From Clostridia bacterium (GTDB lineage: Bacteria; Bacillota; Clostridia; Oscillospirales; CAG-272): a stretch of DNA of 55,288 bases. Both the position numbers and the translations under genes were made by a program. Below the pieces are notes generated by a model. The model was given only the letters and a program-made list of their open reading frames with translations. It was not told where the DNA came from and searched no databases. Below are positions 36,255-53,368 of the stretch, piece after piece. Position 1 is the stretch's first letter; each line of letters opens with the position of its first letter. The stretch lies in contig JAFRQK010000073.1 in assembly GCA_017428635.1 (NCBI GenBank), positions 1 to 55,288 on the forward strand, written 5' to 3'.

Positions 36255-37460
36255 TTAATCGTGTTTCTTAAACTTATAATATTCGTTGACGAGCGATCTG
36301 TACCCGAGCGATTTCAGTTTTTCGTACGTGACCGAGTAGTTTCCCTTGTAGTGCCGCCCGCTCTTTATATACCTCAGGCATTCCGCGAAATACCGGTCCA
36401 GCTCGCGCAGGCCCCTGTCCGTCGTGAGGACGGGAAAGAACCAGCGGCTCCAGTTGAAATCGCGCTCCTCCCCGTCGTCGTAGAACTTCCGGTTGAAGAT
36501 GCGGATGACGACTTTCGCCGCGCGGTCGAAATCGACGTCCTTCCTCGTCCGCCAGCGGTACAGCGCGCGGCATTTGCGCCTCATCTTGTCCTTCATCTTC
36601 TTCACCGCGGCGTCGGAGAGGTCGAACCGTCCGTCCGCGTACTTGAAGCCGAGAAACTCCCACGGCTCTCCGGGCCCCGTGACCGTCACCTTGTCCGGGT
36701 TGAGCGACAGCCCCTTTTCGGCCAGATGATCGGTCAGGATATGCCGATACTCTTCAAGCGACTCCGCGCTCGGGGCGAAGATCAGAATATCGTCGGAATA
36801 GCGGAAGTAAGGAACTCCCTTCCCGTCGAAAAGACGGTCGAGCGACGTTAAATAGACGTTTGCCGAAAAAGCCGACAGCGGCACTCCCGCCATCGCTCCG
36901 CGGTTCCCGCGGACGAGCCGGTCGCCGTCCCACGCGAGGTCCGCGGTAAAGAAATCGGTCAGGAACGCGAGCAGGTCGGGATCGTCGCCGATCACGTCGC
37001 GGAAGATCTGAACGAGCCGGTCCGCCGGGATCGAGTTGAAATAGTCATGGACGTCCGCTTTGAGAACGTACGACCGCCCCGGATCCGCGCCCCGGACGAT
37101 GCCGTCAAGCGCGTCCTTCGCGGAGAGATTTCTCCTGAACGAGTAGCACGACGGGGAAAGATACCCGTCGTACCGGTAAAGAAGATATGAGAGCAGCTTC
37201 AGGACCGGGACCTCGTCCGCGGGGAAAGTGTAAACGATCCGCTTTTTCGAGCTTCCGATCTTGTTTATGACGCGGCGCGAGGGCAGGGAAAAGCCGTGAT
37301 CCGGCTTTGAGATCCGATCCGTGACGGAAAGATACCTCTCCCCTGCGATATATGCGTCAAGCCGCGCAAGATCGCGGTCCGAGATATGGCCGTGTTCCGT
37401 TTTATACTCCCTGAATCGCCGCCAAACGGCGGGGTCGGAGAGTTTATCAAGAATTCCCAT
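36255..37460 (-). CDS. Reverse transcriptase of unassigned class
   Basis: A 401-aa RNA-dependent DNA polymerase without fused maturase, endonuclease or protease domains. RT motifs are in order: SSKKRIVYTFP (72-80), LSPSCYSFRRN (101-111), motif A YVLKADVHDYFNSI with Asp136, GAMAGVPLSAFSANVYL (188-204), catalytic YSDD at 221-224, LSLNPDKV, and PWEFLGFKY. The C-terminal 120 residues form a basic thumb-like region ending GYRSLVNEYYKFKK. It lacks the QGGxxSP of group II introns. It follows about 150 nt of structured non-coding DNA, like RTs that carry their own template RNA. No ribosome site precedes ATG 37460. In-frame upstream starts (ATG 37505, TTG 37523) lie inside the structure. Confidence 0.9.
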   Translation of the reverse strand: MGILDKLSDPAVWRRFREYKTEHGHISDRDLARLDAYIAGERYLSVTDRISKPDHGFSLPSRRVINKIGSSKKRIVYTFPADEVPVLKLLSYLLYRYDGYLSPSCYSFRRNLSAKDALDGIVRGADPGRSYVLKADVHDYFNSIPADRLVQIFRDVIGDDPDLLAFLTDFFTADLAWDGDRLVRGNRGAMAGVPLSAFSANVYLTSLDRLFDGKGVPYFRYSDDILIFAPSAESLEEYRHILTDHLAEKGLSLNPDKVTVTGPGEPWEFLGFKYADGRFDLSDAAVKKMKDKMRRKCRALYRWRTRKDVDFDRAAKVVIRIFNRKFYDDGEERDFNWSRWFFPVLTTDRGLRELDRYFAECLRYIKSGRHYKGNYSVTYEKLKSLGYRSLVNEYYKFKKHD

Positions 37461-37462
37461 AA

Positions 37463-37614
37463 TAAAAAAACAAAAGAAGAAAGGGAAAACGTTTTGAAAT
37501 GGCATAGGTATGCCATGATACAAGACTGAACGCCGTCAGGCCGCCTGCAAGGCACAAGGTAGGCGGCGCTTCGTCCTTCGCAGGCGCGAAAGATCGCGTT
37601 TCCCTTTCTTCTTT
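37463..37614 (-). ncRNA. Putative RT-associated structured RNA
   Basis: Read on the minus strand, AAAGAAGAAAGGGAAACG (37614-37597) pairs with CGTTTTCCCTTTCTTCTTT (37491-37473) over 18 bp with a single bulged T, closing about 105 nt. Inside are a perfect hairpin ATGGCAT-acct-ATGCCAT (37512-37495 region), a 7-bp stem GCCGCCT/AGGCGGC, and an overlapping alternative stem CGCCTGCgAAGG/CCTTGCAGGCG. A T7 run follows the closing stem, three bases before the RT ATG. The long closing stem recalls the a1/a2 repeats of retron msr-msd RNAs. Whether it is reverse transcribed, and whether it has its own promoter, is not known. Confidence 0.62.
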
Positions 37615-37642
37615 GTCGGCTGAAAACTGATCGCTTCAGGTA

Positions 37643-38194
37643 TTACCCGAGGTATTTGTGCAGACGCTGCGTTATGTACGGCACGCTGTTCGGCTCGGCG
37701 ACCCAGAAGTTTATGAGCGGAATGCCAGCCGCCGCTGCCTGCTGTTTCGACCAACGGTACGTGCGTCTGCCGAATTCCGACTTGCCGCCGACGACGATGA
37801 AGAGGCGCGGCGCGCCGCCCGAATAGACGCCGTAGGTGTAGTTCAGGAACTTGCCCGTCCCGCCGATCTCCGTCGGCGATACGTTCTCGCGAACGGAGAA
37901 GGCGGCGAAATCGGACGCGAGCACCTCGCGCAGCTTCGCCGCGACGGGTCGCCCGTCGTCGAAATACATCGGATCGACCGTCTCCTCGGCGTACGCCGGC
38001 GCCGCCGACGGCGCGGAATACGGCTGACCCTGATTCGCAGGCGCGTTGTTCTGCGTCCCCGCGGGACGGTTCGTGCCGAACAGACCGTTTATCGCGTCGT
38101 TCACCGCGTTCCCGACCGCCTGATTCGTCGCGTTTCGCGCGTCCCTCTCGGCTTCGTTCGTTACGCTCTTTATCAATTTGTCAAGAAATCCCAT
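37643..38194 (-). CDS. Unknown 183-aa protein upstream of the RT
   Basis: I do not recognise a named family. The N-terminus MGFLDKLIKSVTNEAERDARNATNQAVGNAVNDAINGLF is a long amphipathic helix. A Pro/Ala/Asn/Gln-rich linker follows (about 40-80), then a compact domain: VAAKLREVLASDFAAFSVRENVSP ... FLNYTYGVYSGGAPRLFIVVGGK ... RTYRWSKQQAAAAGIPLINFWVAEPNSVPYITQRLHKYL. The strand-helix order vaguely recalls restriction-nuclease-like folds, but no (D/E)xK set is convincing. The ATG follows GGAGG. It lies 28 bp ahead of the putative RNA and on the RT strand, so it may be part of the same locus. Its first residues resemble those of the RT (MGILDKL). Confidence 0.75.
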   Translation of the reverse strand: MGFLDKLIKSVTNEAERDARNATNQAVGNAVNDAINGLFGTNRPAGTQNNAPANQGQPYSAPSAAPAYAEETVDPMYFDDGRPVAAKLREVLASDFAAFSVRENVSPTEIGGTGKFLNYTYGVYSGGAPRLFIVVGGKSEFGRRTYRWSKQQAAAAGIPLINFWVAEPNSVPYITQRLHKYLG

Positions 38195-38397: not shown

Positions 38398-39525
38398 ATG
38401 TTGAATAATGATTTTGTTACTGATTTTTTAAAGTCACCTGCGGAGTCTTTTTCGAATTATTGTGTGATTAACGGAAGTATATTAAAACTCAGTGAAGTGG
38501 AAGCAATGGGGTTTCAAGAGTTTAGTTTTCGAGCTAAACTTAATATTCCTCTAAAACTATACCATTATTATCCCAATACGATTAAAACAATTTCGGGCGA
38601 AGAGTTTAATTATTCTCAAATCGCACTCAAAAATAATACGGTTTATATGCAGTCTCCAATTGAATTTGACGACGTTTACGATTCGGAGATTTCTATTGAT
38701 TTTTCCGAATATGAAAGATACAGGCTTTTGGAGTATTGCCGCCGTTGCAACGTTGAGATTAAGGAAGATGAAAAGACCCAAGAGATTGGCGATGCTATTG
38801 TAAAGGCGCTTTGGAATTATTATTTGAAAAACGGATCTTTAGATGGTGTATTTGTAGAGCCACCGACTTCGATGATTCAGGAACTGGCCAACAATGAATT
38901 CTGTCTTCAAGTATTAGTTGAATATAACAATACTCACGATTTTGGCGCTGCGGTTACTAAAACGATTCAAAAAGAGTATAATGAGTATTCGAAAAGGTTA
39001 AAGAATACTTTTCGGGCATTTTGCTTCGCAACATCGCCATACTCGCAACTAATGTGGGGCGGGGTATATGCGGATAATCACAGAGGATTTTGCGTTGAAT
39101 ATACCGTATTGCCTAACGATAATAAGTATAAAGACATTTTTTACAACTTATTCCCCGTGATATACTGCAGATCAAGACCGAATATAACTGGTCGCATTTC
39201 CGCATCACGAGATCAAATGTATGATGAGGAAAAGCTTTGGGATTTGTTCTTTCACGGTGCTCTTAGGAAAAGTATAGATTGGGCTTTTCAAAACGAATGG
39301 CGACTTTTGCTTCCCTTTGGAATAAAAGATACTGACTTTAACGTGAAGTTTTTCCCGATAACAAAAGTTTATTTGGGTAATAGAATGCCTAAAGAAAAAA
39401 GAAAAGAGATAATCGCCATTTGTAAGGAAAGAGGAATACCATATATCGGTGTAAAAAGAAACCCGGGAAGGTTTGAAATGCAGGATTGCGAAATACTGTG
39501 CGAAGACTGTCCATATTATCGGTAG
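38398..39525 (+). CDS. DUF2971 family protein
   Basis: A 375-aa protein of the DUF2971 family. Recognisable parts are LYHYYPN ... NNTVYMQSPIEFDDVYDSEI, the conserved central FRAFCFATSPYSQLMWGGVYADNHRGFCVEY, and the C-terminal WAFQNEWRLLLPF ... ITKVYLGNRMPKEKR. A Cys pair and final CEDCPYY end the protein. The function is unknown. The family is frequent in mobile and defence islands. The gene is AT-rich with codon use unlike the core genes on its left. A GGGTGTCC-like site precedes the ATG, and a terminator follows. Confidence 0.85.
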   Translation: MLNNDFVTDFLKSPAESFSNYCVINGSILKLSEVEAMGFQEFSFRAKLNIPLKLYHYYPNTIKTISGEEFNYSQIALKNNTVYMQSPIEFDDVYDSEISIDFSEYERYRLLEYCRRCNVEIKEDEKTQEIGDAIVKALWNYYLKNGSLDGVFVEPPTSMIQELANNEFCLQVLVEYNNTHDFGAAVTKTIQKEYNEYSKRLKNTFRAFCFATSPYSQLMWGGVYADNHRGFCVEYTVLPNDNKYKDIFYNLFPVIYCRSRPNITGRISASRDQMYDEEKLWDLFFHGALRKSIDWAFQNEWRLLLPFGIKDTDFNVKFFPITKVYLGNRMPKEKRKEIIAICKERGIPYIGVKRNPGRFEMQDCEILCEDCPYYR

Positions 39526-39563
39526 ATTTGAACCTGATGTTTTATTCTAAAAAACGATCAGAA

Positions 39564-39596
39564 AGCGGATTCTTGTAACAAAGGATCTGCTTTTTA
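39564..39596 (+). terminator. Terminator of the DUF2971 gene
   Basis: AGCGGATTCTT and AAGGATCTGCT pair over 11 bp including two G-T wobbles, followed by TTTTTATTT. Confidence 0.8.
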
Positions 39597-39653
39597 TTTA
39601 TAGCATTGAAACAAGGGCAGAGTAAAGAGCACAACTATGTTGCTTATATCCCG

Positions 39654-39698
39654 TTGACTCATAATCCACGAACAATTACAATGAAAATGGATAATTGT
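39654..39698 (+). promoter_or_regulatory. Promoter and possible operator of the XRE-DUF2075 operon
   Basis: TTGACT (39654-39659) and TACAAT (39677-39682) have a 17-bp spacer. An inverted repeat ACAATTA/TAATTGT (39672-39678 and 39692-39698) straddles the -10 and start region and could be the site of the XRE protein. Confidence 0.65.
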
Positions 39699-39718
39699 AG
39701 AAACGTGTCGGAGGTCAT

Positions 39719-39928
39719 ATGATCACAGAAGAATTGGGAAAGCGTATTCAAGAACTCAGGAAAGAGAAAACCGGGCTTTCTCAGGAAAAATTTGCGTTAC
39801 AAATCGATATGGATCGCAGTTATTTCGCTTCCGTAGAATCCGGGAAGCGAAACATATCCATAGTAAATATCAAAAGAATCTCCGACGGTCTCGGCGTTTC
39901 CCTCAGCGAGTTGTTTGAGGGGATTTAA
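39719..39928 (+). CDS. XRE-family transcriptional regulator
   Basis: A 69-aa Cro/CI-type DNA-binding protein that is only a helix-turn-helix domain: ELGKRIQELRKEKTGLSQEKFALQIDMDRSYFASVESGKRNISIVNIKRISDGLGVSLSELFE. The recognition helix is near DRSYFASVESGK. The ATG is preceded by GTCGGAGG. It lies 23 bp ahead of the nuclease-helicase gene and probably controls that operon. Similar stand-alone XRE proteins guard restriction and defence genes. Confidence 0.92.
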   Translation: MITEELGKRIQELRKEKTGLSQEKFALQIDMDRSYFASVESGKRNISIVNIKRISDGLGVSLSELFEGI

Positions 39929-39951
39929 TTTAAAAAATATGAGGTGTTCGA

Positions 39952-41907
39952 ATGCCTAAAGCATATTATGACAATTCAATATCGGGTTTTCTCAATACAT
40001 CAGACGAAACGATACTCGGACGACTTTTGATAAGTGATGAGTTCAGAACAACGACAGAGCAAAAGAACGCATGGAGAGATGAGATTTGTATTCTGAAAAA
40101 ACAGTTATCAAGCGTTCCAGACGGTTCGATAGTTTTTGAATATACAATTCCGCGAATCGGTGATCGTATCGATGTCGTATGCCTTATTCGCGGTATTGTA
40201 TTTGTTCTCGAGTTCAAGGTCAATCAAGAAGAGTATTTACCATATGACGAGGAACAAGTTGTTGATTATTGTCTTGACCTCAAGTATTTTCACGAGGAAA
40301 GTGAACACCGTCATATTGTGCCAATCCTTGTAGCTACAAAAGCGCCACATTTTGGAACAACGGTAACAATTTTTGATGATAAAGTTGTTGATACAATTCT
40401 CTGCAATGAAACAAATATTGCTGAAAAGATAAATGCAGTTCTGAGAGTTATTCCGTCTGACGACGAGATAACCGCAAATGCTTGGATTAATTCAAAATAC
40501 AGACCTACGCCTACGATAATTGAAGCCGCGCAAGCTCTTTATCAAAAACACGATGTGAAAGAGATTTCTCGCAACGATGCAGGCGCCGAGAATCTTGAAA
40601 AAACAAACGCTGCAATAAACTACGTCATTGAAGATTGCAAGACTAATCATAAAAAAGCCATCTGCTTTATTACGGGTGTACCCGGAGCGGGAAAAACACT
40701 TGCCGGATTGAATATTGCAAATACAAGGCATCAGTTTGAAGAAAACGACCACGCTGTTTTTCTTTCCGGTAATGGTCCTCTCGTCCAAGTGCTACAAGAA
40801 GCGTTGGCGCGAGACGACTCAAAGCGAAATTCTATAAGCAAGAGCAAGGCAAAGACGAAAACAAAAGCATTTATACAGATCGTCCATCGCTTTCGAGACG
40901 CTGCCGTATTGAGTGATGACGCTCCTATTGAAAAGGTTGCTATTTTCGATGAGGCTCAACGCGCCTGGGACATGGAACAGCTGACGAAATTCATGGCGCA
41001 AAAGAAGGGGGTTCCCGATTTCAACAAGTCTGAGCCAGAGTCCCTTATTGAATTTATGAACCGCCACGACGACTGGGCGACTATCGTTTGTTTGGTCGGC
41101 GGCGGTCAGGAAATAAACACGGGAGAGGGCGGTATCGTCGACTGGTTTGACGCTCTAAGAGATAATTTCTCCGAGTGGGAGATCTACCTTTCCGACAAAA
41201 TGACCGATTCGGAATATGTCGGAGATTCGTCAATAGATGATCTGCTCGGCCGTGATTATCACGTGATTCCGGAATTACATTTGAGCGTTTCAATGCGCTC
41301 CTTCAGAAGTGAAAAACAATCAGCGTTTGTAAAGGCACTTCTCGATTGTAATGTTGGAGAAGCCGCGTTTCTTTACAATGAATTAAAGGATAAATATCCT
41401 ATAGTTCTGACAAGAGATTTGACTGTTGCAAAGCAATGGGTACGTTCCAAATCGCGAGGAAGCGAAAGGTATGGAATGATGGCGACTTCTGCAGCAGAAC
41501 GCCTGCGGGCGCGCGGAATCTGGGCATCGAATGAGATTAAGCCGGAGAAGTGGTTCCTCGAAGGTAAAGACAATGTCGATTCATCATATCATCTCGAAAT
41601 AACGGCAACAGAGTTTGACATTCAAGGTCTTGAAATCGATTACGGTATAGTCGCATGGGACGGAGACGTCAGGTACTTTGACGGAGAATTTACCTACCGC
41701 CGGTTTACCCGTAATATGTGGTGTAACGTCAATAAGGAAGAACGCCGCAGATATATGAAAAACGCTTACCGTGTCCTTCTAACTCGTTCTCGTCAAGGTA
41801 TGGTGATCTACGTCCCCGAGGGAAATGCGGAGGACGTAACAACAGCGCCGGAATTGTATGATAGTACATACGAATATTTGAAATCGGTGGGGATCGAGGA
41901 GATTTGA
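39952..41907 (+). CDS. DUF2075 helicase with N-terminal nuclease-like domain
   Basis: A 651-aa protein of the DUF2075 group of superfamily 1 ATPases. Residues about 1-150 look like a restriction-nuclease-type domain (GDRIDVVCLIRGIVFVLEFK: D ... ExK). The helicase core follows: Walker A GVPGAGKT (about 241-248), Walker B VAIFDEAQRAWD, LVGGGQEINTGEGG, SVSMRSFRS, and motif VI-like NAYRVLLTRSRQGMVIYVP near the end. It should unwind or translocate on nucleic acid, with cleavage from the N-terminal domain. It lies behind the XRE regulator in one operon. Its relatives occur in defence islands. Confidence 0.88.
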   Translation: MPKAYYDNSISGFLNTSDETILGRLLISDEFRTTTEQKNAWRDEICILKKQLSSVPDGSIVFEYTIPRIGDRIDVVCLIRGIVFVLEFKVNQEEYLPYDEEQVVDYCLDLKYFHEESEHRHIVPILVATKAPHFGTTVTIFDDKVVDTILCNETNIAEKINAVLRVIPSDDEITANAWINSKYRPTPTIIEAAQALYQKHDVKEISRNDAGAENLEKTNAAINYVIEDCKTNHKKAICFITGVPGAGKTLAGLNIANTRHQFEENDHAVFLSGNGPLVQVLQEALARDDSKRNSISKSKAKTKTKAFIQIVHRFRDAAVLSDDAPIEKVAIFDEAQRAWDMEQLTKFMAQKKGVPDFNKSEPESLIEFMNRHDDWATIVCLVGGGQEINTGEGGIVDWFDALRDNFSEWEIYLSDKMTDSEYVGDSSIDDLLGRDYHVIPELHLSVSMRSFRSEKQSAFVKALLDCNVGEAAFLYNELKDKYPIVLTRDLTVAKQWVRSKSRGSERYGMMATSAAERLRARGIWASNEIKPEKWFLEGKDNVDSSYHLEITATEFDIQGLEIDYGIVAWDGDVRYFDGEFTYRRFTRNMWCNVNKEERRRYMKNAYRVLLTRSRQGMVIYVPEGNAEDVTTAPELYDSTYEYLKSVGIEEI

Positions 41908-42078
41908 CGGAATTCCCGAAAGAATCCGCGTTTCCAATCGAGATGAGTATGAAGGTAGCATATAAACAAATGAGCAATTCATTTTGTTTACTTGTAATGA
42001 CGAAAATGTCAGAATAATCATTTATAAACATTCACAAAGGGTGAATGTCATGTTGGTTTAAAAAAGAAAGGAGAAAAA
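41908..42078. other. Non-coding gap with two inverted repeats
   Basis: TAAACAAATGA/TCATTTTGTTTA (41963-41973 and 41979-41990, one-base indel) could end the DUF2075 transcript. ACATTCAC/GTGAATGT (42028-42035 and 42041-42048), just upstream of the next gene, looks like an operator. No strong -35/-10 pair is evident. Confidence 0.45.
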
Positions 42079-42969
42079 ATGTCACATTATTGCATTAGAC
42101 AAACAAGAATCACCAAGTTGGAACTTCCCAAAGGATACGTTAAATCAGTTATACAAATTGGTGTCCCCAATACAGACGAGAGAGCTGTAAAAGTAGGACT
42201 AAAATCCATCGGCGATATGGTATTGCCTTCTGCAGATTATGGCCCAATCTGCAAAAAGAATGCGTACGGGTACAGCTATTCAGATAAAACTAAACAAAAA
42301 GAAGAGCGATATGTTTCTACAGTTTGGATCAAGCCTTATGGCAATGAACATGCCTCACCTGTTGCAAGTGATATCTATAGAAAATGTTATCCAAAGATCA
42401 ATGTTCCTCCTACCGATATTGAACTTGTACTGTATGAGAATGATAATAACGAAACGTATATAATTGCTGATTTAACCACAGAAATACGGGATAATTATCT
42501 AAAAGATGCAATCAATCTTTTTCTCGAAATATTTCATGAGTGTTATGTTTTTTCGGATGAAATAAGAATTGATGCAAAAACAAAACGACGCAAATGTAAT
42601 TGGGAGATCTTGCCTCCTGGCGAAAAACCGAGCACACACCTTTACGAACAACTTAGAGATGGTGGAAAAACCGATTCATTTGACCTTGTTCGTTTACAAA
42701 CACTTGATAAATATTTGGTTGAACAAATAGTCGAAGGAATAAACGGTTTTGCAGGATATTATGCATATGTTTTCAAAAAGCATTGCGTCCTTGAATCTGC
42801 TAAATATGGAAACGCTACATACATTATTCCCAAGAAAAACTGGGAAACTTACAGTCAGATGACAAAGAAAGAGTTATTCGACGATAAAATAGTTATAGAT
42901 AAACTAATTCATAATGAAAACTGGCAGTTGAATATCGCGCAGGTAATCAATAAACTTGAAAACCAATAA
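42079..42969 (+). CDS. Unknown protein, first gene of the HAD/GNAT/ASCH cassette
   Basis: A 296-aa protein I cannot place in a family. It begins SHYCIRQTRITKLELPKGYVKSVIQIGVPNTDERAVKVGLKSIGDMVLPS and has a middle segment rich in aromatic and acidic residues (LVLYENDNNETYIIADLTTEIRDNYLKDAINLFLEIFHECYVFSDEI). No signal peptide or membrane segment is visible. Composition is strongly AT-rich. The ribosome site AAAGGAG is strong. It ends 21 bp before the HAD gene on the same strand, so it belongs to a four-gene operon running to 45337. Confidence 0.75.
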   Translation: MSHYCIRQTRITKLELPKGYVKSVIQIGVPNTDERAVKVGLKSIGDMVLPSADYGPICKKNAYGYSYSDKTKQKEERYVSTVWIKPYGNEHASPVASDIYRKCYPKINVPPTDIELVLYENDNNETYIIADLTTEIRDNYLKDAINLFLEIFHECYVFSDEIRIDAKTKRRKCNWEILPPGEKPSTHLYEQLRDGGKTDSFDLVRLQTLDKYLVEQIVEGINGFAGYYAYVFKKHCVLESAKYGNATYIIPKKNWETYSQMTKKELFDDKIVIDKLIHNENWQLNIAQVINKLENQ

Positions 42970-42990
42970 TCAAAACGAGGAGATCCGTCA

Positions 42991-43902
42991 ATGTCAAACA
43001 TAATTGCTGTCGTTTGGGATTTTGATAAAACACTTATTGGGGACTACATGCAAGAACCAATTTTCAAAAAATATAATGTTGATGGTAAAGCTTTCTGGGA
43101 GGAAGTCAATTCTTTGCCCGAAAAGTATAAAAAGGAGCAAGGGGTACGTGTAAACGTGGACACCATATATTTGAATCATTTTATAAACTATGCAAGACAA
43201 GGACGTTTCCCTGGGCTAAATAACAGTGTTCTTAGAGCTCTTGGATCAGAATTGGTGTTTTATAATGGTCTCCCCCAACTTATGGCAACTACCAAAGATA
43301 TGATTGAGAGTGACTCAAAGTATTCTGAATATGACATTAAAATCGAACACTATATCGTTAGTACTGGTTTTACAGAAATGATAAGAGGTTCAGCAGTTGC
43401 ACCTTATGTATCCGATATTTGGGGATGCGAACTGATAGAAGTCCCTGATGAAAACGGGAACATGATAATTGGCGAGATTGGATATACAATTGATAATACC
43501 ACAAAAACGCGTGCTTTGTTTGAAATTAATAAAGGTGTTGGAAAACTGGAGAATGTTAATGTAAACACAAAAATGCCAGAAGAAATTCGTAGAGTCCATT
43601 TTAAAAATATGATTTATATCGCAGATGGCCCGAGTGATGTTCCTGCGTTTTCGACCTTAAATAAAAGTGGTGGTGCAACATTTGCAATTTATCCGCACAA
43701 TGATGAAGAAGCATTTAAACAAGTTGAGCAACTTAGAAAAGACGGAAGAATAAACATGTATGCAGAAGCAGATTATTCTGAGGGCACAACTGCTTATATG
43801 TGGATTACGGGTAAGATTAAGGAATTTGCTGATAGAATCAGAAATGAAGAACGCGAGAAACTGCGTTCTTCCATTTCTGAAACCCCCAAGCATCTTGTTT
43901 AA
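42991..43902 (+). CDS. HAD superfamily phosphatase
   Basis: A 303-aa HAD phosphohydrolase. Motif I is VVWDFDKTLIGDYM with nucleophile Asp10, motif II is VSTGFTEMI, and motif IV is MIYIADGPSDVPAF. A helical cap fills about residues 20-110. Phosphate removal from a small molecule or nucleotide end is likely, but the substrate is unknown. It has a CGAGGAG site, lies second in the four-gene cassette, and is 9 bp ahead of the GNAT gene. This HAD type is found as an accessory gene in bacterial islands rather than in core metabolism. Confidence 0.87.
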   Translation: MSNIIAVVWDFDKTLIGDYMQEPIFKKYNVDGKAFWEEVNSLPEKYKKEQGVRVNVDTIYLNHFINYARQGRFPGLNNSVLRALGSELVFYNGLPQLMATTKDMIESDSKYSEYDIKIEHYIVSTGFTEMIRGSAVAPYVSDIWGCELIEVPDENGNMIIGEIGYTIDNTTKTRALFEINKGVGKLENVNVNTKMPEEIRRVHFKNMIYIADGPSDVPAFSTLNKSGGATFAIYPHNDEEAFKQVEQLRKDGRINMYAEADYSEGTTAYMWITGKIKEFADRIRNEEREKLRSSISETPKHLV

Positions 43903-43911
43903 GGAGAAAAA

Positions 43912-44979
43912 ATGTTAGATAAACTTGTGTGGAAATCGTTTGCAGATATTGATATCAGTGATAGATTTTTTGATTCATTAAAGGCAGACTATGTGGGATT
44001 TAACAAATGGTTTTCAGAAAAGCAGAGAAAAAAAGAACGAGCATTGATTCTTGAAAATTCAACTGGAATTCATGCGTTTCTTTATTTGAAAGAAGAATTT
44101 GAATCTATTAAAACAATTACATATGTAATTCCCGCCAAAGAAAGAATTAAAATTGGAACATTTAAACTTGACGATACAATTAGTAATCAAAGACTTGGCG
44201 AAGGCTTAGTTGGGGTATCCCTTTGGAAATGGCAGGAATCCAAAGCGGAAGAAATCTATGTTACAGTATTTGAAAAGCAAGAAAAGTTGATAGGATTACT
44301 AACGAAATTTGGATTTAGATTACTGGGGAGAAAGGAAAATGGTGAATTAGTACTTGGGAGAAGCCGTTTGGATATCGATTATTCAAACGCATATACTTCT
44401 TTCCCATTTATCTCACCAAAAACAAAAAAAGCAGGGCTTATTCCGATCAACGATTATTTCCACGATCGGTTATTTCCATATTCAGAAACCGTCTATACTT
44501 CTTATGAGGTAGAAGAGGTAACAGCCGGAAATGGAATAACAAAAGTTTATATCGGCAGTCCTTTTACAGTCACTCATTATTCAGAGGGTGACATCGTGGT
44601 TATTTATAGAAAATATACCGGAGAAGGTTCCAAGGGAAATAAATCCGCAGTCACTTCTTTTTGCATTATTACAAAAATAACCGTTGTTAAGCGTGACAAT
44701 CGAATTATGATCCCCTATGAACAATTTCTCAAAGAAGCAGGCAACAAAACCGTATTCACTCCGGAAGAACTTAAAAGCGTTTATGAAAACGCGAATGTTG
44801 TAATGATAGAAATGACATATAACGGTTTTTTCAACAAAGGCCATAACGTCACCTATTGGAATTTAAAAAACAGAGGACTCTTTGAAGAGTATCCGTACAA
44901 TATTACATATTCATTGGATCAAATGAAACATATATTGAAGATGGGCGGGAAAGATGTCAACAATATTATTGTCTGTTAA
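43912..44979 (+). CDS. GNAT acetyltransferase fused to a PUA/EVE-like domain
   Basis: A 355-aa two-domain protein. Residues about 1-150 look like a GNAT N-acetyltransferase (AFLYLKEEF, QRLGEGLVGVSLWKWQESKAEEIYVTVFEKQEKLIGLLTKFGFRLLGRKENGELVLGR). Residues about 200-350 resemble a PUA/EVE-type nucleic-acid-binding fold (VYIGSPFTVTHYSEGDIVVIYRKYTG ... SAVTSFCIITKIT). The pair suggests acetylation of something bound to modified RNA or DNA; tRNA-targeting GNAT toxins are a known precedent, though the PUA-like partner is different. It overlaps the ASCH gene by 26 bp. Confidence 0.72.
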   Translation: MLDKLVWKSFADIDISDRFFDSLKADYVGFNKWFSEKQRKKERALILENSTGIHAFLYLKEEFESIKTITYVIPAKERIKIGTFKLDDTISNQRLGEGLVGVSLWKWQESKAEEIYVTVFEKQEKLIGLLTKFGFRLLGRKENGELVLGRSRLDIDYSNAYTSFPFISPKTKKAGLIPINDYFHDRLFPYSETVYTSYEVEEVTAGNGITKVYIGSPFTVTHYSEGDIVVIYRKYTGEGSKGNKSAVTSFCIITKITVVKRDNRIMIPYEQFLKEAGNKTVFTPEELKSVYENANVVMIEMTYNGFFNKGHNVTYWNLKNRGLFEEYPYNITYSLDQMKHILKMGGKDVNNIIVC

Positions 44980-45337
44980 ACCACGTTTTGCTCACAAATT
45001 AATCGACGGGGCTAAAAAATATGAGTATAGGAAACGTTTGCCACTTTGCAAGGTAAGTAAAATCGTGGTCTATTCCTCTTTTCCTGAGAAGAAAATCATT
45101 GGAGAACTTGAAGTCGTTGATACTATTTCTATGAAAAAAAGTCCCTTATGGGAAAAGACAAAAAAAGAATCTGGAATCACACGTGATGAGTATAGGCAAT
45201 ATTTTCAAGGATGTAACTTGGCCTACGCTTACGTTGTAGGAAAAGCTAAAAGATATGAAAAACCTTTGGAATTGTCGGATTACGATATAACTCGTGCTCC
45301 ACAGTCATTTGTGTATATGACAGTAATTCCAGAATAA
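44954..45337 (+). CDS. ASCH domain protein
   Basis: A 127-aa ASCH (PUA-superfamily) protein. The family pattern is clear: ILLSVKPRFAHKLIDGAKKYEYRKRLP (the conserved lysine-containing loop), KIVVYSSFPEKKIIGELEVVDT, and LAYAYVVGKAKRYEKPLELSDYDI ... PQSFVYM. ASCH proteins bind RNA and some hydrolyse modified cytidines. It starts inside the end of the GNAT gene (26-bp overlap in another frame), so translation is coupled. It is the last gene of the cassette and converges on the SLOG gene 17 bp away. Confidence 0.88.
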   Translation: MSTILLSVKPRFAHKLIDGAKKYEYRKRLPLCKVSKIVVYSSFPEKKIIGELEVVDTISMKKSPLWEKTKKESGITRDEYRQYFQGCNLAYAYVVGKAKRYEKPLELSDYDITRAPQSFVYMTVIPE

Positions 45338-45354
45338 CGAAATAGGATCATACC

Positions 45355-45792
45355 TTATTTTATATAAAGATTAATTATCGTTTTCCCTTTCCGACCGGCC
45401 AGTTTCTTGAACTGTGCGGCGCGGGAGCCGGAATCATGGACTACATAGGTAACCACGAAATCCGATTGCTCAATCATCCATTTGTTCCGGTAGTTGATGG
45501 CGAAGCGTTTGATGACAGTCTCGATACCCTCCGGAAGGATGGTATCGGAGTAGTCCGTCAGCCGGTATTCGTCCTGCTTCTCCGGCATATACGCGAGAAC
45601 GACGTGATACCGAATCGGATACTTGGCTGAAAGCTCGCGCAGGACCCTGCGGACCATCGCGTCGAAGTCCCCGTGATTGCCGACGTAAAAAAGATCCACT
45701 TCGTGATGTTCTATCAAATCGATCAGAGTCGACCGTAAGGTCGGCTCTATCTTTTGCGGTACGTAACGGTGTCCGAAAAACGTGCAGGTCAT
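45355..45792 (-). CDS. YpsA-type SLOG family protein
   Basis: A 145-aa Rossmann-like SLOG protein (YpsA/DUF1273 group), a family thought to bind nucleotides or nucleotide-like ligands. TCTFFGHRYVP at the N-terminus, FYVGNHGDFDAMVRRVLREL, and AINYRNKWMIEQSDFVVTYV are the characteristic blocks. The ATG at 45792 follows AAGGAGA; the upstream frame runs through the operator region and is not translated. It is transcribed divergently from an XRE gene, and both share four copies of a GCGATATATC-type operator, so the XRE protein should regulate it. Confidence 0.87.
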   Translation of the reverse strand: MTCTFFGHRYVPQKIEPTLRSTLIDLIEHHEVDLFYVGNHGDFDAMVRRVLRELSAKYPIRYHVVLAYMPEKQDEYRLTDYSDTILPEGIETVIKRFAINYRNKWMIEQSDFVVTYVVHDSGSRAAQFKKLAGRKGKTIINLYIK

Positions 45793-45808
45793 AAAAAGGT
45801 CTCCTTTG

Positions 45809-45903
45809 TGGGATATATCGCAATTATAACACGCTTTTATCAGCTTTGCGATATGTCCCACACGATTTATCGCAGATTTGGGTAAAATCTTAGCGATATA
45901 TCG
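45809..45903. promoter_or_regulatory. Shared operator region of the divergent SLOG and XRE genes
   Basis: Two inverted pairs of one motif are present. Arms 45809-45823 and 45846-45860 (TGGGAyATATCGCAA, 14/15 identical) flank the minus-strand -10 box TATAAT (45828-45823). Arms 45863-45873 and 45893-45903 (CGATwTATCGC, 10/11 identical) flank the probable XRE promoter (TAAAAT near 45883). The common core is GCGATATATC. Binding by the XRE protein would cover both promoters. Confidence 0.8.
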
Positions 45904-45920
45904 TGAATGGGAGATATTAT

Positions 45921-46163
45921 ATGAACACCAAAGAGGCTGTCGCCGAGAGAATAATCCAAATCTGCAAGGAACGTAATATGGCGATAAATGCGCTTGCCAA
46001 TATTTCCGGCGTTTCGCCGTCCACGATTTACAGCATGCTGAACGAAAAGAGCCAGAACCCGGGTGTCGTTTCGCTCAAGAAACTCTGCGACGGTTGGGAG
46101 ATCAGCCTCCGTGAATTTTTCGATTCTCCGTTGTTTGACGATCTGGAACAGGAAATAAAGTAA
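45921..46163 (+). CDS. XRE-family regulator
   Basis: An 80-aa helix-turn-helix protein: TKEAVAERIIQICKERNMAINALANISGVSPSTIYSMLNEKSQNPGVVSLKKLCDGWEISLREFFDSPLF. The recognition helix is PSTIYSMLNEK. I start at the ATG at 45921, which follows GGGAGAT; the six residues upstream lack support. It probably represses itself and the divergent SLOG gene through the repeated GCGATATATC sites. Confidence 0.92.
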   Translation: MNTKEAVAERIIQICKERNMAINALANISGVSPSTIYSMLNEKSQNPGVVSLKKLCDGWEISLREFFDSPLFDDLEQEIK

Positions 46164-46182
46164 AAGAAAGCTGATAATAAAA

Positions 46183-46229
46183 AACTGCCGCCGTACCGGA
46201 GCAATGCTCTAATACGGCGGCGTGTTTAT
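46183..46229. terminator. Terminator between XRE and the small Fic-linked gene
   Basis: GCCGCCGTA (46187-46195) and TACGGCGGC (46213-46221) form a perfect 9-bp stem. The minus-strand side ends in AGTTTTTTATT, and the plus side in GTGTTTATT. Confidence 0.85.
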
Positions 46230-46247
46230 TAAGCGTTTTCTTAACAA

Positions 46248-46526
46248 TCAATTCAACAACTTTGCTTTTAGAATATTAACTTGCATTATCAATTCAGACA
46301 CTATTCCCTCGTTCGGAACTTGATCAAATGGCAGCGAACCCGCTGCCAATCTAACAGTTGTTGCAGCAGCAACTTGTTCATCCGTCAAGCGTAACTTTTG
46401 GATTTTTTCAATTGCCGATTGGCGATCGAGTATACCGGTCGAATAATATTTATTTATAATCTCTTCTCGTTCACGAATATCTTTTGCGATCGAAACTTTA
46501 TCGTTTTTTCCTTTTTCGTTGTTCAT
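46248..46526 (-). CDS. Small unknown protein downstream of Fic
   Basis: A 92-aa hydrophilic, helical protein without a recognised family: KDIREREEIINKYYSTGILDRQSAIEKIQKLRLTDEQVAAATTVRLAAGSLPFDQVPNEGIVSELIMQVNILKAKLL. The ATG has AAGGGG upstream. It is 41 bp behind the Fic gene on the same strand and ahead of a terminator, so it is made from the Fic promoter. It could be a partner or modulator of Fic, but sequence alone does not show this. Confidence 0.65.
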   Translation of the reverse strand: MNNEKGKNDKVSIAKDIREREEIINKYYSTGILDRQSAIEKIQKLRLTDEQVAAATTVRLAAGSLPFDQVPNEGIVSELIMQVNILKAKLLN

Positions 46527-46567
46527 GTTAATTCCCCTTATTTACGATAGTCAGCGCTTTATACGCT

Positions 46568-47608
46568 TTAATCTTTCCTCACATAGCACGTCGTTCTTCC
46601 GCCGCCGAGTTTTTCGATCTCGCCGAGGGCGCAGAGTTCACGCAAACGGCGTTCCACCGACGACGCGCTCATTGAGGTACAGAGGTCGGCAATATCGGAT
46701 TTGGTGAACTTCCCGATCTGCGTTCTGACCGCGTTTCTCACGGTTTCGAGCGGAGAGTCCGCAACGAGTTCCATCCGCTCCTCAAAATCGCGGTAGGCGG
46801 CGATGATCGTTCCCAGCAGATACTTTATAAACGGCGTCGGATCGTCCTCGCCCTCGTGCCATCCGTTCTGCGATTCCTCAAGCGCGTCGTAATAACTCTC
46901 TTTCGTTTTTTCGATCTTGCTCTCGAGCGAAATATACCGTCCGATCTCATATCCGCTCCGATACAGCAGGAGGGTAGTCAACAGCCGCGACATTCTGCCG
47001 TTGCCGTCGATAAACGGGTGAATACAGAGAAAGTCGTGTATAAAAACCGGGATGATCAACAGCGGGTCGACCTTTCCTTCACCGACGGCGAAATTGAACG
47101 CGTCGCAGATATCCCGCATCGCGCCGGGCGTTTCATACGGCGCGGTCGGCGTAAACAGAGCGTACGCCTTTCCGTCCGCGCCTGTCGCGCTGATATAGTT
47201 CTGCACGTTCTTGAACGATCCGCCGAACGCGCTGTCGGTATGGCTGAACATTATCTTGTGAAGCTGAAGAATATAGTTCGGGGTCAGCGGAATATATTCG
47301 AAATTCTCGTGGACGGTATTCAGCGCGTCACGATATCCGGCGATCTCTTTTTCGTCGCGGCTGCGCGGCGCTGTCTTCTCTCCCATCAGTTGGCGCAGGC
47401 GCGTGTCCGTTGTGCGGATCCCCTCGATCGCGTTTGAAGATACCGTGCTTTGGATCTTCGCGATCTCGACGAGCTTTTTGACGTCTTCCGTCCTTTGGCG
47501 CAGATAAACCGCCTGTTTGCCCTTTTCCTCATGGATCAGGGACAGGTAATTGATGATCTCGTTATCCCACGTTTTATTCTTTAATGATGAATAATCAAAT
47601 CTCCGCAT
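46568..47608 (-). CDS. Fic family AMPylator with C-terminal winged helix
   Basis: A 346-aa Fic enzyme, expected to transfer AMP from ATP to hydroxyl side chains of target proteins. The inhibitory helix SNAIEG (Ser58-xxx-Glu62-Gly63) is at the N-terminus, making it a self-restrained class II Fic. The catalytic motif HPFIDGNGRMSR starts at His197. Flap residues precede it (FKNVQNYIS). The last 70 residues form a winged helix (IGKFTKSDIADLCTSMSASSVERRLRELCALGEIEKLGGG). I start at ATG 47608, spaced from AGAGGTG; ATG 47614 abuts the site. The promoter carries a palindrome likely bound by this protein. Confidence 0.92.
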   Translation of the reverse strand: MRRFDYSSLKNKTWDNEIINYLSLIHEEKGKQAVYLRQRTEDVKKLVEIAKIQSTVSSNAIEGIRTTDTRLRQLMGEKTAPRSRDEKEIAGYRDALNTVHENFEYIPLTPNYILQLHKIMFSHTDSAFGGSFKNVQNYISATGADGKAYALFTPTAPYETPGAMRDICDAFNFAVGEGKVDPLLIIPVFIHDFLCIHPFIDGNGRMSRLLTTLLLYRSGYEIGRYISLESKIEKTKESYYDALEESQNGWHEGEDDPTPFIKYLLGTIIAAYRDFEERMELVADSPLETVRNAVRTQIGKFTKSDIADLCTSMSASSVERRLRELCALGEIEKLGGGRTTCYVRKD

Positions 47609-47625
47609 TTTCATCACCTCTTCGT

Positions 47626-47665
47626 TATTCTCGTCAATTATACCACATTTGACGAGAATAGTCAA
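47626..47665 (-). promoter_or_regulatory. Fic promoter with overlapping palindromic operator
   Basis: On the minus strand TTGACT (47665-47660) and TATAAT (47642-47637) are 17 bp apart. A perfect 11-bp inverted repeat TATTCTCGTCA/TGACGAGAATA (47626-47636 and 47650-47660) brackets the -10 box. Binding there would shut the promoter. Confidence 0.88.
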
Positions 47666-47700
47666 GCGACCGGCTGATATCTTCATCCGGTCGCTTTTAT
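47666..47700 (+). terminator. Terminator-like hairpin facing spoVT
   Basis: GCGACCGG and CCGGTCGC form a perfect 8-bp stem followed by TTTTATTT. No plus-strand gene precedes it, so it may insulate spoVT from transcripts coming off the Fic operator region. Confidence 0.7.
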
Positions 47701-47770
47701 TTCTCTTTCGGTATAATTCTCTCATAAAAAACAGATAATAGAAACGTATCAACAGAAAAGGAGATCATAA

Positions 47771-50964: not shown

Positions 50965-51531
50965 TCATATTGACTTTAACAAATCAATTCTATTCTGGGC
51001 TTTTGATTCAATTGACCTCATATAATTGCCCATGTACTCCCAATCAGGTAAATATCCTTCGTCAGAATACTTTTTTTCGTTGTCTACGAATAAAGATCCG
51101 TCAGCATTATGTATAACAGGCAATTTTATTGCTAAAAATTTCAGATTGTCGCTTGTCAAAGCATCGCTATAGTCATACTTTTGCGCAGAAATCTTAATGA
51201 CAGTACAAATAAAAAGTGCGTTATATTTAGAAAGGTTATTATTGTAAAGTAGAGAAATCGCAGATCCAGCGCCACCTCTTCCTAAAAAGTCGTCCTCCTG
51301 ATAGAATGATGCTCCGTCTAAAGGGCTAACAGTTATACAATTACCTTTTTCAAGCTGTTCATTATCTTTCTTTTCCAAATATGAAATAATACCGTTATTA
51401 GTAGCTCCGGATGAAACATAAGGAATATCTCCATCATTATAAGTTTTTATGGTTCTTGGCGCTGGAGAACTAATGGAAAACAATTTTGAAACAACAAACT
51501 CTTGCCATTCATGGACGTCGATTTTATTCAT
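50965..51531 (-). CDS. Specificity (S) subunit, single target-recognition domain
   Basis: A 188-aa DNA-specificity protein of the type I S / BcgI-B type. WQEFVVSKLFSISSPAPRTIKTYNDGDIPYVSSGATNNGIISYLEKKDNEQLEKGNCITVSPLDGASFYQEDDFLGRGGAGSAISLLYN is a standard target-recognition domain opening, and the C-terminus (DWEYMGNYMRSIESKAQNRIDLLKS) is the conserved spacer helix. Only one such domain is present, so it probably works as a dimer or beside the recognition surface of the fused enzyme. The ATG at 51531 lies inside the 3' end of the methylase gene (8-bp overlap). Confidence 0.88.
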   Translation of the reverse strand: MNKIDVHEWQEFVVSKLFSISSPAPRTIKTYNDGDIPYVSSGATNNGIISYLEKKDNEQLEKGNCITVSPLDGASFYQEDDFLGRGGAGSAISLLYNNNLSKYNALFICTVIKISAQKYDYSDALTSDNLKFLAIKLPVIHNADGSLFVDNEKKYSDEGYLPDWEYMGNYMRSIESKAQNRIDLLKSI

Positions 51532-53368
51532 GTTCTTTTCCCCTTTCAATACAAATATCGATTGTATTATGAGAATCTTCTGAAGAAATATTGCTTAAAT
51601 ATATTACTTTATTTACAATGCTCTCTTTTAAAGATTTAACATCAATTTCTTCCTTAAACATCAAATAATCAATCATTGTTTTTACAAAATCTTCTTCAGA
51701 AACTTCAAATGGTATTTCATCTTTTTGATAACTCAAATGATTATTTGGGTTTATCCATTTAATGCTTTCATCGCCGCTTTGCTTTTTTATGATATCAACC
51801 CACTTATCCTCAATGCTTTTCCACCTATGTCTAATATCCTGACGACCTTGATTTTTCACTCTTTCAAGTCCATCTTCCTTAATATAACAAGTAAAAATTT
51901 CTTCATTATTTTGAGGAATTGCACTTTCAAATATGAAAATTGATGTTGTAATTCCCTCGTCAAAGGTTTTTTCAGGAAGTTTTATAATCTTAAGCAAACG
52001 ATGCTTAGAAAGAATGCTTTTCACTGTGCTTTTTGATACCTTCTCCAACTTTTTGTCTGGTAATAAAAACGCACAGACAGAATGAGGTTTGACATTGTCT
52101 AAAACATTTTTAACAATGATTTCCGGATGGCATTTTCTCTCGTATGGGGGATTCATTAAAACTTTCGAAATGCCTTTACTTTTGATCCATTGACAGGCTT
52201 CTTGAGATGTTGAATCCATTTGTTCCAAATTTGTTTTTCCGTCTTTATGGATCAACATGTTTGCACACGCTAACGAAAACACGCGTTTGTCAATTTCTAT
52301 GCCATACAATTGCGAGGACATTATCTCTGTCGCTTTCCTTGACGAGTAACCTCCAACTTCTCGTATCATATTCGACATAGCCTTTGTTAAGAAAGCACCA
52401 CTTCCACAAGCAGCATCTAAAATCCTATCATTATTTACATCTACATTTATTAATCGATACATCAAAGATGTTATGTGATCGGGTGTAAACACTTGTCCAT
52501 TTTCTGATTTTCCCTTATAACGATTGAATTCGTTAAAAAAGATTCCCATAACATCTTCGCCGTTCCAATTCTTCGAGTTAATCAGATTGGAAATAACTTC
52601 AACACTATCGATAAAGTCATCTATTGCTGCTTGATTGTTAGTGATATTCATTTGAATTTTCGAATATGAATCAAGAAGAATATCAAGTTTTTCATTTTGC
52701 TTTTTTGCTTCTTCTAGCGATTTAGAAAGCGTATCTAATATTGTAAAATGAAACAGCGAATACGACATCCCTTTTACTAATGGTGCGCCGTATCTTTTGG
52801 CAACTAAAGCGCAAGCGGTAAACACCATCCTGTCATAGTAATCATTTACGCCAAATTTAAAGTGAAGTAAGTTGTTTATCTTCATTGTAGTCAGGTAAAT
52901 TTGCTTAGTATCAATCTCAAAATCATCAAAGAGTTCCAAATAATAATTCTTTGATTGAAGGTCGTTTGCAATATTGCATTTTTCGTTTTCATTTAAGAAA
53001 ACTCTCGTTCTGTCACCATTGTACAGTATGCCTACGACTTTAGAATATTTACTGTTAGCTATTCTGACATTCTGTAACAATTCTTCTGTAATATCCTTTG
53101 AATCAATGTCCTTGTCAGAAGATTTTGTTTCCAAGATAATAGCAACTTTTGTGAAAGTACTTGGCAGATACCACCCATCCGGCTTATGATTATTTCCTTT
53201 ACCGACAAAACCAAGACTTTTAAAAGTAGTTATCTGACCAGTTCCTTGTTGTACACCTTCAACCGGTTTATCAAATTCGAGAATTTGTTTTGCGCCAAAA
53301 TGAAATCCTTTATTATCTGTATAGCCATCTCTAACTTCATCTTCAGTTAATACTCTAACTGTTGCCAT
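51524..53368 (-). CDS. Fused restriction nuclease and N6-adenine methylase (BcgI-like)
   Basis: A 614-aa bifunctional enzyme. The N-terminal nuclease domain shows KPDGWYLPSTFTKVAIILETKS: Pro63-Asp64 ... Glu80-Thr-Lys82, a PD-(D/E)xK site. A helical bundle (about 170-280) leads to the methylase: NGQVFTPDHITSLM, motif I DAACGSGAFL, motif IV NPPYERK (N6-adenine type). A C-terminal region contacts the specificity protein. With the S gene this makes a two-gene type IIB/IIG-like system that would both cut and protect. GGAGGTAA precedes the ATG. Confidence 0.9.
   Translation of the reverse strand: MATVRVLTEDEVRDGYTDNKGFHFGAKQILEFDKPVEGVQQGTGQITTFKSLGFVGKGNNHKPDGWYLPSTFTKVAIILETKSSDKDIDSKDITEELLQNVRIANSKYSKVVGILYNGDRTRVFLNENEKCNIANDLQSKNYYLELFDDFEIDTKQIYLTTMKINNLLHFKFGVNDYYDRMVFTACALVAKRYGAPLVKGMSYSLFHFTILDTLSKSLEEAKKQNEKLDILLDSYSKIQMNITNNQAAIDDFIDSVEVISNLINSKNWNGEDVMGIFFNEFNRYKGKSENGQVFTPDHITSLMYRLINVDVNNDRILDAACGSGAFLTKAMSNMIREVGGYSSRKATEIMSSQLYGIEIDKRVFSLACANMLIHKDGKTNLEQMDSTSQEACQWIKSKGISKVLMNPPYERKCHPEIIVKNVLDNVKPHSVCAFLLPDKKLEKVSKSTVKSILSKHRLLKIIKLPEKTFDEGITTSIFIFESAIPQNNEEIFTCYIKEDGLERVKNQGRQDIRHRWKSIEDKWVDIIKKQSGDESIKWINPNNHLSYQKDEIPFEVSEEDFVKTMIDYLMFKEEIDVKSLKESIVNKVIYLSNISSEDSHNTIDICIERGKEHE

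What the first reader, a model, noticed from the sequence alone, without database searches (positions are those of the whole stretch)
36255..38194. Reverse transcriptase locus with its own structured RNA and an unknown 183-aa partner
Seen: on one strand, a 183-aa gene, then about 150 nt of non-coding DNA closed by an 18-bp inverted repeat (37614-37597 with 37491-37473) holding several hairpins and ending in T7, then an intact RT (Asp136, YSDD 221-224). Known: retrons and several defence RTs (for example DRT2 and DRT9) sit directly behind their template RNA, and retron RNAs are closed by a1/a2 repeats. Inference: this is an RT-ncRNA system with a possible protein partner. The RT does not show group II intron, DGR or classical retron signatures that I can name, so it may be an undescribed class.
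Basis: partly seen in the sequence, partly recalled or inferred. Interest (0 to 1): 0.85.

Follow-up and report, generated by a model that had tools for sequence, protein, structure and literature searches.

The report
Reverse transcriptase with RNA and partner
A gut bacterium carries a three-part unit, a reverse transcriptase of the uncharacterised UG26 group, a knotted RNA of about 150 bases and a small protein of unknown family, and the three parts are mostly inherited together across many bacteria, so it is probably an untested relative of known anti-virus systems.

Summary
The RT is a UG26 reverse transcriptase (PADLOC E 3.8e-159). The RNA is already catalogued as Rfam RT-5 (79.8 bits), so neither is an undescribed class; the 183-aa partner matches no family at E<=1 in four libraries. 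New here: (1) RNA and RT are tied: the same 6 of 196 genomes of the class carry each, and 83 of 86 sources carry the full ~150-nt RNA. (2) The RNA exceeds the Rfam model: a covarying closing stem, an extra hairpin and a pseudoknot. (3) The partner is found in 70 of 86 loci, in none of the 190 sampled genomes of the class without UG26, and its distances track the RT's (r=0.79). (4) The RNA seems its own transcript: 9 of 13 loci without a found partner have a -10-like box before it; in one genome it lies 7.3 kb from the RT, intact. (5) A loop between a stem and the pseudoknot is unconserved but lacks DRT10's A-B-A' repeat. Likely a DRT-like RT-RNA-effector system; product and defence role are unproven.

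The parts
37643..38194 (-). Partner protein, 183 aa; variable N-terminal part, then a conserved C-terminal domain of about 105 aa
   Evidence: Homologues in 70 of 86 loci; no Pfam, PADLOC, NCBIfam, PHROGs or PDB sequence match for this protein at E<=1; only copy in its genome at E<=0.01
37474..37623 (-). Whole ncRNA as matched by covariance model R1 (150 nt; the first 9 nt lie before the closing stem)
   Evidence: 128.4 bits, (the window RNA is among the model's seeds); Rfam RT-5 covers only 37486-37589
37599..37614 (-). P1 closing stem, 5' arm
   Evidence: covariation of P1
37473..37488 (-). P1 closing stem, 3' arm
37586..37597 (-). P2 hairpin (GCGAUCUUUCGC)
   Evidence: 4 pairs, all with both-side changes, 88.1% of cells paired
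37579..37585 (-). Pseudoknot, 5' strand (GCCUGCG)
   Evidence: not in the model; 97.9% of cells pair (91.9% in shuffles), 39 both-side changes against 6.3
37543..37550 (-). Hairpin loop holding the pseudoknot 3' strand (UUGCAGGC)
37573..37576 (-). P3, 5' strand (pairs with 37526-37523)
   Evidence: 96.3% of cells paired
37562..37569 (-). P4, 5' strand (pairs with 37537-37530)
   Evidence: 93.9% of cells paired, 7 of 8 pairs with both-side changes
37554..37561 (-). Unconserved internal loop (UACCUUGU here), between P4 and P5: candidate template
   Evidence: near-zero information in most columns; length 8-13 in 65 of 83 RNAs
37540..37553 (-). P5 hairpin (37553-37551 with 37542-37540) that presents the pseudoknot loop
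   Evidence: 98.4% of cells paired
37499..37516 (-). P6 hairpin (AUGGCAUACCUAUGCCAU)
   Evidence: 74.9% of cells paired
36255..37460 (-). UG26 reverse transcriptase, 401 aa; Asp136, YSDD 221-224; Tyr379 invariant in the C-terminal part
   Evidence: PADLOC RT_UG26 E 3.8e-159; RVT_1; invariant residues

Best explanation
This is a three-part UG26 system of the kind exemplified by DRT10. A discrete pseudoknotted RNA of about 150 nt (structure shown by covariation; separate transcription inferred) binds the UG26 RT (inferred). The RT reverse transcribes part of that RNA, most likely the unconserved loop that lies 3' of a stem and 5' of the pseudoknot, and may start from a tyrosine of its own C-terminal part such as Tyr379 (both inferred). 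The partner protein, with a domain distantly like a nuclease fold whose acidic pair is not kept, most likely senses or binds the RNP or its cDNA and acts as the effector or its guard (inferred). The likeliest role is anti-phage defence, by kinship with other UG systems and by the defence-like genes beside this copy; it is not shown.
For: RT group. RNA. RNA and RT in the same 6 of 196 genomes. Helix and pseudoknot covariation. Partner in 70 of 86 loci and in 3 of 196 genomes of the class, all three with UG26. Co-inheritance over 65 loci: partner-RT r=0.79, RNA-RT 0.69, partner-RNA 0.65, highest of 1000 shuffles 0.13. A -10-like box just before the RNA in 9 of 13 loci without a found partner (8 of 11 without the two contig-end loci), against 10 of 70 with partner and 7.7% of random sites. 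RNA 7.3 kb from the RT with seven called genes between, six of them on the other strand; it still scores 86.6 bits. The layout stem, weakly conserved template, pseudoknot is described for DRT2, and the order stem, template, pseudoknot for telomerase RNA (PMC12039810, passages). Partner against a DUF2726 profile: hhalign 66% probability, P 5.6e-5, in register; control against the RT alignment 0.9%. Window neighbours: PDC-S31, PDC-S41, PDC-S34, PDC-M11A, SoFic, restriction-modification.
Against: No cDNA, RNA or phage data. The loop lacks the A-B-A' repeat that DRT10 needs, so it may not be the template or the mechanism differs. Of 99 neighbouring proteins scanned from 34 loci, at most 7 match PADLOC at 1e-15; the Pfam families there are varied and mostly metabolic or transport (25 of 74 families shown). 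11 loci with upstream sequence have RNA and RT but no partner found, so the partner is not obligatory. The nuclease-fold likeness is one weak profile match and no structure model could be made. The promoter count was not matched for A+T content.
Confidence: 0.55

Rival explanations
1. Telomerase-like repeat addition as in DRT10: the loop is an A-B-A' template that yields tandem-repeat cDNA (here CCUUG-UG-CCUUG would give CACAAGG repeats).
For: The window RNA itself has CCUUG at 37559-37555 and again at 37552-37548. [quoted passage not shown] Weak hints in the tests: one of six versions of the downstream-strand test has p 0.034 against letter shuffles but 0.22 against swapped loops; of 81 word tests three pass z 1.8, best 2.1.
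Against: Over 70 non-redundant RNAs the longest repeat in the loop is 2.29 against 2.20 in shuffles (95% point 2.33); the first two loop letters recur in 22 against 31.7 expected. Power with |A|=2 in half of the RNAs was 0.94 (free position) and 1.0 (fixed); in 30% it was 0.59 and 0.86. The second CCUUG lies in P5 and the pseudoknot loop; the near-identical relative L010 has ACUUG as the first copy.
Confidence: 0.12
2. The RNA is only a leader or scaffold that controls or binds the RT; the RT copies something else (phage RNA or random sequence).
For: The loop is unconstrained in sequence and evolves at about the rate of four-fold sites, as expected of a loop without a sequence-dependent job. 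The RNA 3' stem ends at most 30 nt before the RT start in 45 of 77 loci.
Against: In L157 the RNA is 7.3 kb from the RT, and in L068 two genes that look like trkA and trkH (read from the sequence, no family search of these two) lie between: it is not merely a leader there. Class 2 UG systems studied so far rely on cis-encoded template RNAs (PMC13174585, passages); that UG26 belongs to Class 2 is recalled, not tested.
Confidence: 0.25
3. A self-diversifying system, DGR-like, in which the RT rewrites the loop.
For: The loop differs between close relatives (window against L036).
Against: Loop divergence is about that of four-fold sites, and some loops are identical at four-fold divergence 0.27-0.49 (L045/L051, L059/L070/L064).
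Confidence: 0.03
4. A housekeeping or mobile-element RT with no defence role.
For: Neighbours in 34 loci are mostly different genes without PADLOC match. No close UG26 in the phage, plasmid or viral collections searched: the 15 hits listed for each of plasmids and phages have 24-32% identity and all 4870 and 21 records lie under 60%; viral contigs gave none and 33 loci at 21-31%.
Against: Patchy presence (6 of 196 in the class, 2 of 398 in the phylum), divergent copies within one genus (RT identity 45-46% in three of five other carriers), and six flanking proteins matching PADLOC models in this window fit a defence cargo. UG26 has been listed in cold-seep viruses (PMC10504277, passages).
Confidence: 0.25

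Closest known systems
UG26 reverse transcriptases (PADLOC RT_UG26, DRT group)
   Same: Full-length match, 527.7 bits, residues 1-399
   Different: Only the name was found in the papers held; its RNA and partner were not described there
Rfam RF03026 RT-5 RNA
   Same: 79.8 bits, gathering score 45.7, positions 1-104 of 104
   Different: The printed Rfam consensus marks no closing stem, P2 or pseudoknot; the RNA here is about 150 nt
DRT10 (UG17 + SLATT + ncRNA)
   Same: Three parts: RT, structured RNA (137 nt in Eco3), small protein; poorly conserved loop next to a stem (PMC12632851, parts 1-3 of 8 and passages)
   Different: Other RT group (UG17 model 77.6 bits against 527.7); the window partner has no Pfam match at E<=1, SLATT included; no A-B-A' enrichment
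DRT2 (UG2)
   Same: Pseudoknotted RNA near the RT; template is the least conserved part (PMC12039810, passages)
   Different: No sign of frame constraint (loop lengths 24/22/24 over residues 0/1/2 mod 3 in 70 RNAs); loop of 8-13 nt against a 120-nt template
DRT9 (UG28)
   Same: RT with ncRNA and nearby SLATT protein (PMC12483538, passages)
   Different: DRT9 has a conserved poly-U template (PMC12632851); the loop here is unconserved

Membership tests
UG26 RT | Best and full-length match to the UG26 profile | tested here: met
   E 3.8e-159; next model E 1.5e-32. No tree was built
Rfam RT-5 | Score above the gathering cut-off | tested here: met
   79.8 bits, cut-off 45.7
DRT10 | UG17 RT | tested here: not met
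   UG17 77.6 bits, UG26 527.7
DRT10 | A-B-A' template enriched across homologues | tested here: not met
   for the loop between P4 and P5 and the strand after it only; no DRT10 positive control was run
DRT10 | SLATT partner | tested here: not met
   window partner: no Pfam match at E<=1; none among the 25 of 72 weak families shown for 70 partners
DRT (anti-phage) systems in general | Demonstrated RT-dependent phage protection | not testable with these tools
   needs a plaque assay
Group II intron | Maturase profile above cut-off; intron RNA | tested here: not met
   102.4 of 300 bits; no intron RNA in the window at gathering score
Retron | Retron RT profile above cut-off; msr-msd RNA | tested here: not met
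   NCBIfam St85 42.6 of 235 bits, retron-TIR 15.5 of 600; at gathering score the RNA matches RT-5 only. The closing stem resembles a1/a2 but a branching G was not tested
DGR | Accelerated, RT-driven variation of a template or target | tested here: not met
   for the loop; TR/VR pairs were not searched
PD-(D/E)XK / DUF2726-like (partner) | Profile similarity | tested here: inconclusive
   hhalign 66%, P 5.6e-5; no Pfam DUF2726 among families shown for the partner proteins. That DUF2726 belongs to PD-(D/E)XK is recalled
PD-(D/E)XK / DUF2726-like (partner) | Catalytic acidic pair (D of VDFVL, E of AIELDD) | tested here: not met
   window has T120 and V134 there. Of 70 partner rows 10 are acidic at the first and 9 at the second place, none at both. 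Catalytic roles recalled

The most novel reading that the evidence does not exclude
UG26 is a separate way for an RT to use a dedicated RNA: a template loop placed as in telomerase RNA (3' of a stem, 5' of a pseudoknot) whose sequence is free to drift and which is not reset by A-B-A' homology, so that the product is a short or non-homology-extended cDNA read by a degenerate nuclease-fold partner.
Probability: 0.3. Interest if true: 0.8.

Novelty: new variant of a known kind. Interest (0 to 1): 0.62.

Why it matters
It joins three things that stood apart in the sources searched, a named RT group, a named RNA and an unnamed protein family, into one testable system with defined ends, and gives relatives in named species (Ruminococcus flavefaciens MA2007, L077). 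It also tests a stated idea, that telomerase-like repeat addition might be a theme across UG RTs: in the UG26 RNA the similarly placed loop lacks the needed repeat.

Tried and rejected
A-B-A' templating: it looked convincing in the window RNA and failed over the family. A scan of 183 position pairs for identity and for complementarity gave best z 3.1 and 3.0, no run of neighbouring pairs. Complementarity of the loop to the rest of its RNA: none (4.65 against 4.70). Longest match of the loop to 1.5 kb upstream or 2.5 kb downstream exceeded swapped loops by 0.13 to 0.39 letters, 1.5 to 3.5 standard deviations; I put this down to shared base composition but did not test that. Loop hypermutation: rejected. 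Neo-like open frame: no mod-3 constraint of the loop; P1-to-P1 lengths gave 23/14/33 over residues 0/1/2, not tested further. Motif regexes for the RNA mostly misfired and were replaced by the covariance model.

Limits of counts. A4 holds 84 rows, one a spurious reverse-strand hit (L084 minus), dropped before the loop counts (83) but kept. Non-redundant loop sets: 79 (distinct loops), 70 (outside-loop identity under 85%); 72 loops of 8-16 nt. A6 leaves out L007, L030, L036, L037, L039, L078, L084; in L036 the RT match is 1204 nt long, so frameshifted. The neighbour scan used 99 of 256 candidate proteins, from the first 34 loci, after I dropped by eye ORFs that shadow the partner. The Mantel test used 65 loci. 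The 86 sources hold a few near-identical pairs (window/L010, L035/L039, L045/L051). A4 was fitted to the structure, which favours its helices; the pseudoknot was not in the model. No DRT10 set was fetched as a positive control for the A-B-A' test; power was simulated instead. No tree of RTs was built.

Full report
Observation. On the minus strand lie a 183-aa ORF (38194-37643), 182 nt without an evident gene and a 401-aa reverse transcriptase (37460-36255). The inverted repeat is 37614-37599 with 37488-37473, 16 of 16 complementary. The strand folds 5.48 standard deviations better than shuffles.

What the RT and the RNA are. The RT is UG26. The group II, retron and named DRT models of NCBIfam stay below their cut-offs. 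Rfam finds one RNA in the window at its gathering score: RT-5, inside the gap. Both are thus catalogued. A full-text search for UG26 gave three papers, one of them about RTs, which only lists UG26 among RTs of cold-seep viruses (PMC10504277, passages); further searches on DRT systems, RT-5 and structured RNAs gave no study of UG26 in their listings. The library lacks most subscription papers; that UG26 belongs to Class 2 is recalled.

Relatives. A scan of genome contigs gave 80 UG26-like loci from records titled as Bacillota, Bacteroidota and Actinomycetota groups, many from ruminant guts. In genome samples UG26 is rare: 2 of 398 in the phylum, 6 of 196 in the class, 6 of 12 in the genus. In the genus, two relatives (96% and 76-87%) hold it beside the same transporter gene as the window, whereas in G580 and G588 a copy of 45% identity lies on another contig than that gene. 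The RNA lies beside the RT in four of the five other genus carriers; the fifth locus, L134, ends about 3 nt before the RT (inferred from its length). The RNA search of the class sample rings in the same 6 of 196 genomes as the RT search.

The RNA. A covariance model from 21 seeds finds the full RNA in 83 of 86 sources; L007, L058 and L063 lack it in the sequence held, and L058 has only 464 nt before the RT. Over 82 distinct rows, 90.4% of cells pair, 791 cells change on both sides against 249 in shuffles, and sliding the strands drops pairing to 48-53%. A pairing that was not in the model, GCCUGC near the 5' end with GCAGGC in the P5 loop, pairs in 97.9% of cells (91.9% in shuffles, 27-46% when slid) with 39 both-side changes against 6.3: a pseudoknot. 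The Rfam consensus as printed shows neither it nor the closing stem nor P2.

A discrete RNA. Of 13 loci with the RNA where no partner was found, 9 have a -10-like hexamer (5 of 6 or better) just before the closing stem, against 10 of 70 with a partner and 7.7% of random sites; two of the 13 (L017, L037) end too close to exclude a partner, and without them it is 8 of 11. In G475 the RNA is 7.3 kb from the RT, while in its congener G450 it is adjacent. It scores 86.6 bits there; closing stem, P2 and pseudoknot look intact by eye, and a hairpin followed by a T run lies just behind the RNA. Between them are seven called genes, six on the other strand and one on the same strand directly before the RT. 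In L068 two genes that look like trkA and trkH lie between RNA and RT. So the RNA probably can work in trans.

The partner. Iterated HMM search finds it in 70 of 86 loci, upstream of the RNA on the same strand; L061 has a second copy downstream. Of the 16 others, L017, L037 and L058 end too close to tell (L058 has a truncated weak match, E 0.0017) and in 13 no partner was found in the sequence held. In the class sample it occurs in 3 of 196 genomes, all three UG26 carriers; three other UG26 carriers lack it. In the phylum sample it occurs in 1 of 119, the window's own. RT, RNA and partner distances correlate (0.65 to 0.79; shuffles at most 0.13). Pfam gives only scattered weak matches for 70 partners (best shown E 0.005), NCBIfam likewise (best E 0.0024); the PDB profile search gives a repeat-region hit at E 0.0058 and LINE-1 ORF1p at 0.02, none convincing. 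A profile comparison with DUF2726 aligns the core in register at 66% probability. No partner row keeps both acidic residues of that family: 10 of 70 are acidic at the first place, 9 at the second, none at both. I read it as a probable degenerate nuclease fold, not as established.

The loop. Between P4 and P5 lies a loop of 8-13 nt in 65 of 83 RNAs with little information in any column. In telomerase RNA and DRT2 the template lies 3' of a stem and 5' of a pseudoknot, and in DRT2 it is the least conserved part (PMC12039810, passages). DRT10 templates are also poorly conserved but keep A-B-A' in 85 to 95% (PMC12632851, parts 1-3). Here A-B-A' is not enriched; single sub-tests reach p 0.03, as many tests were made. 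The loop diverges about as fast as four-fold sites. So either it is a template whose letters do not matter and which is not reset by homology, or it is not the template.

Role. The window copy borders a low-GC stretch with proteins matching PADLOC candidates PDC-S31, S41, S34, M11A, a control-type HTH, a Fic protein and restriction-modification genes. But of 99 neighbours from 34 loci at most 7 match PADLOC at 1e-15. No matched control gene set was scanned. Defence is therefore plausible by kinship, not shown by context.

Noticed in passing
window 38398-47752 and 50965-53368: Low-GC stretch (0.35-0.47 over 38-47 kb) with matches to PADLOC models: DUF2971 protein (PDC-S31), control-type HTH plus Schlafen-type helicase (PDC-S41), HAD-like protein (PDC-S34), PDC-M11A, a Fic protein, then specificity and N6 methylase genes.
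   Followed up: partly
L157 (G475:C18), L068: RNA separated from its RT by 7.3 kb with seven called genes between, or by two genes that look like trkA and trkH.
   Followed up: partly
L036 and G583:C142 (L126, L133, L137): A close relative of the window copy with a frameshifted RT but a full-scoring RNA and a partner ORF; could be decay or assembly error.
   Followed up: no
window 38194 and 37460: Partner and RT begin alike (MGFLDKL, MGILDKL). A start of the form M, G/S/D, then two hydrophobic residues is seen in 55 of 70 partners and 29 of 79 RTs as cut for the alignments.
   Followed up: partly
L061:3190-3792 and 5773-6510: Two partner paralogues flank one RNA-RT unit, both with a CxxC...CxxC start (by eye).
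   Followed up: no
L018, L021, L022, L057, L068: TrkH-like potassium transporter genes recur beside UG26 units (3 of 99 scanned neighbours match TrkH; L057 and L068 by eye).
   Followed up: no
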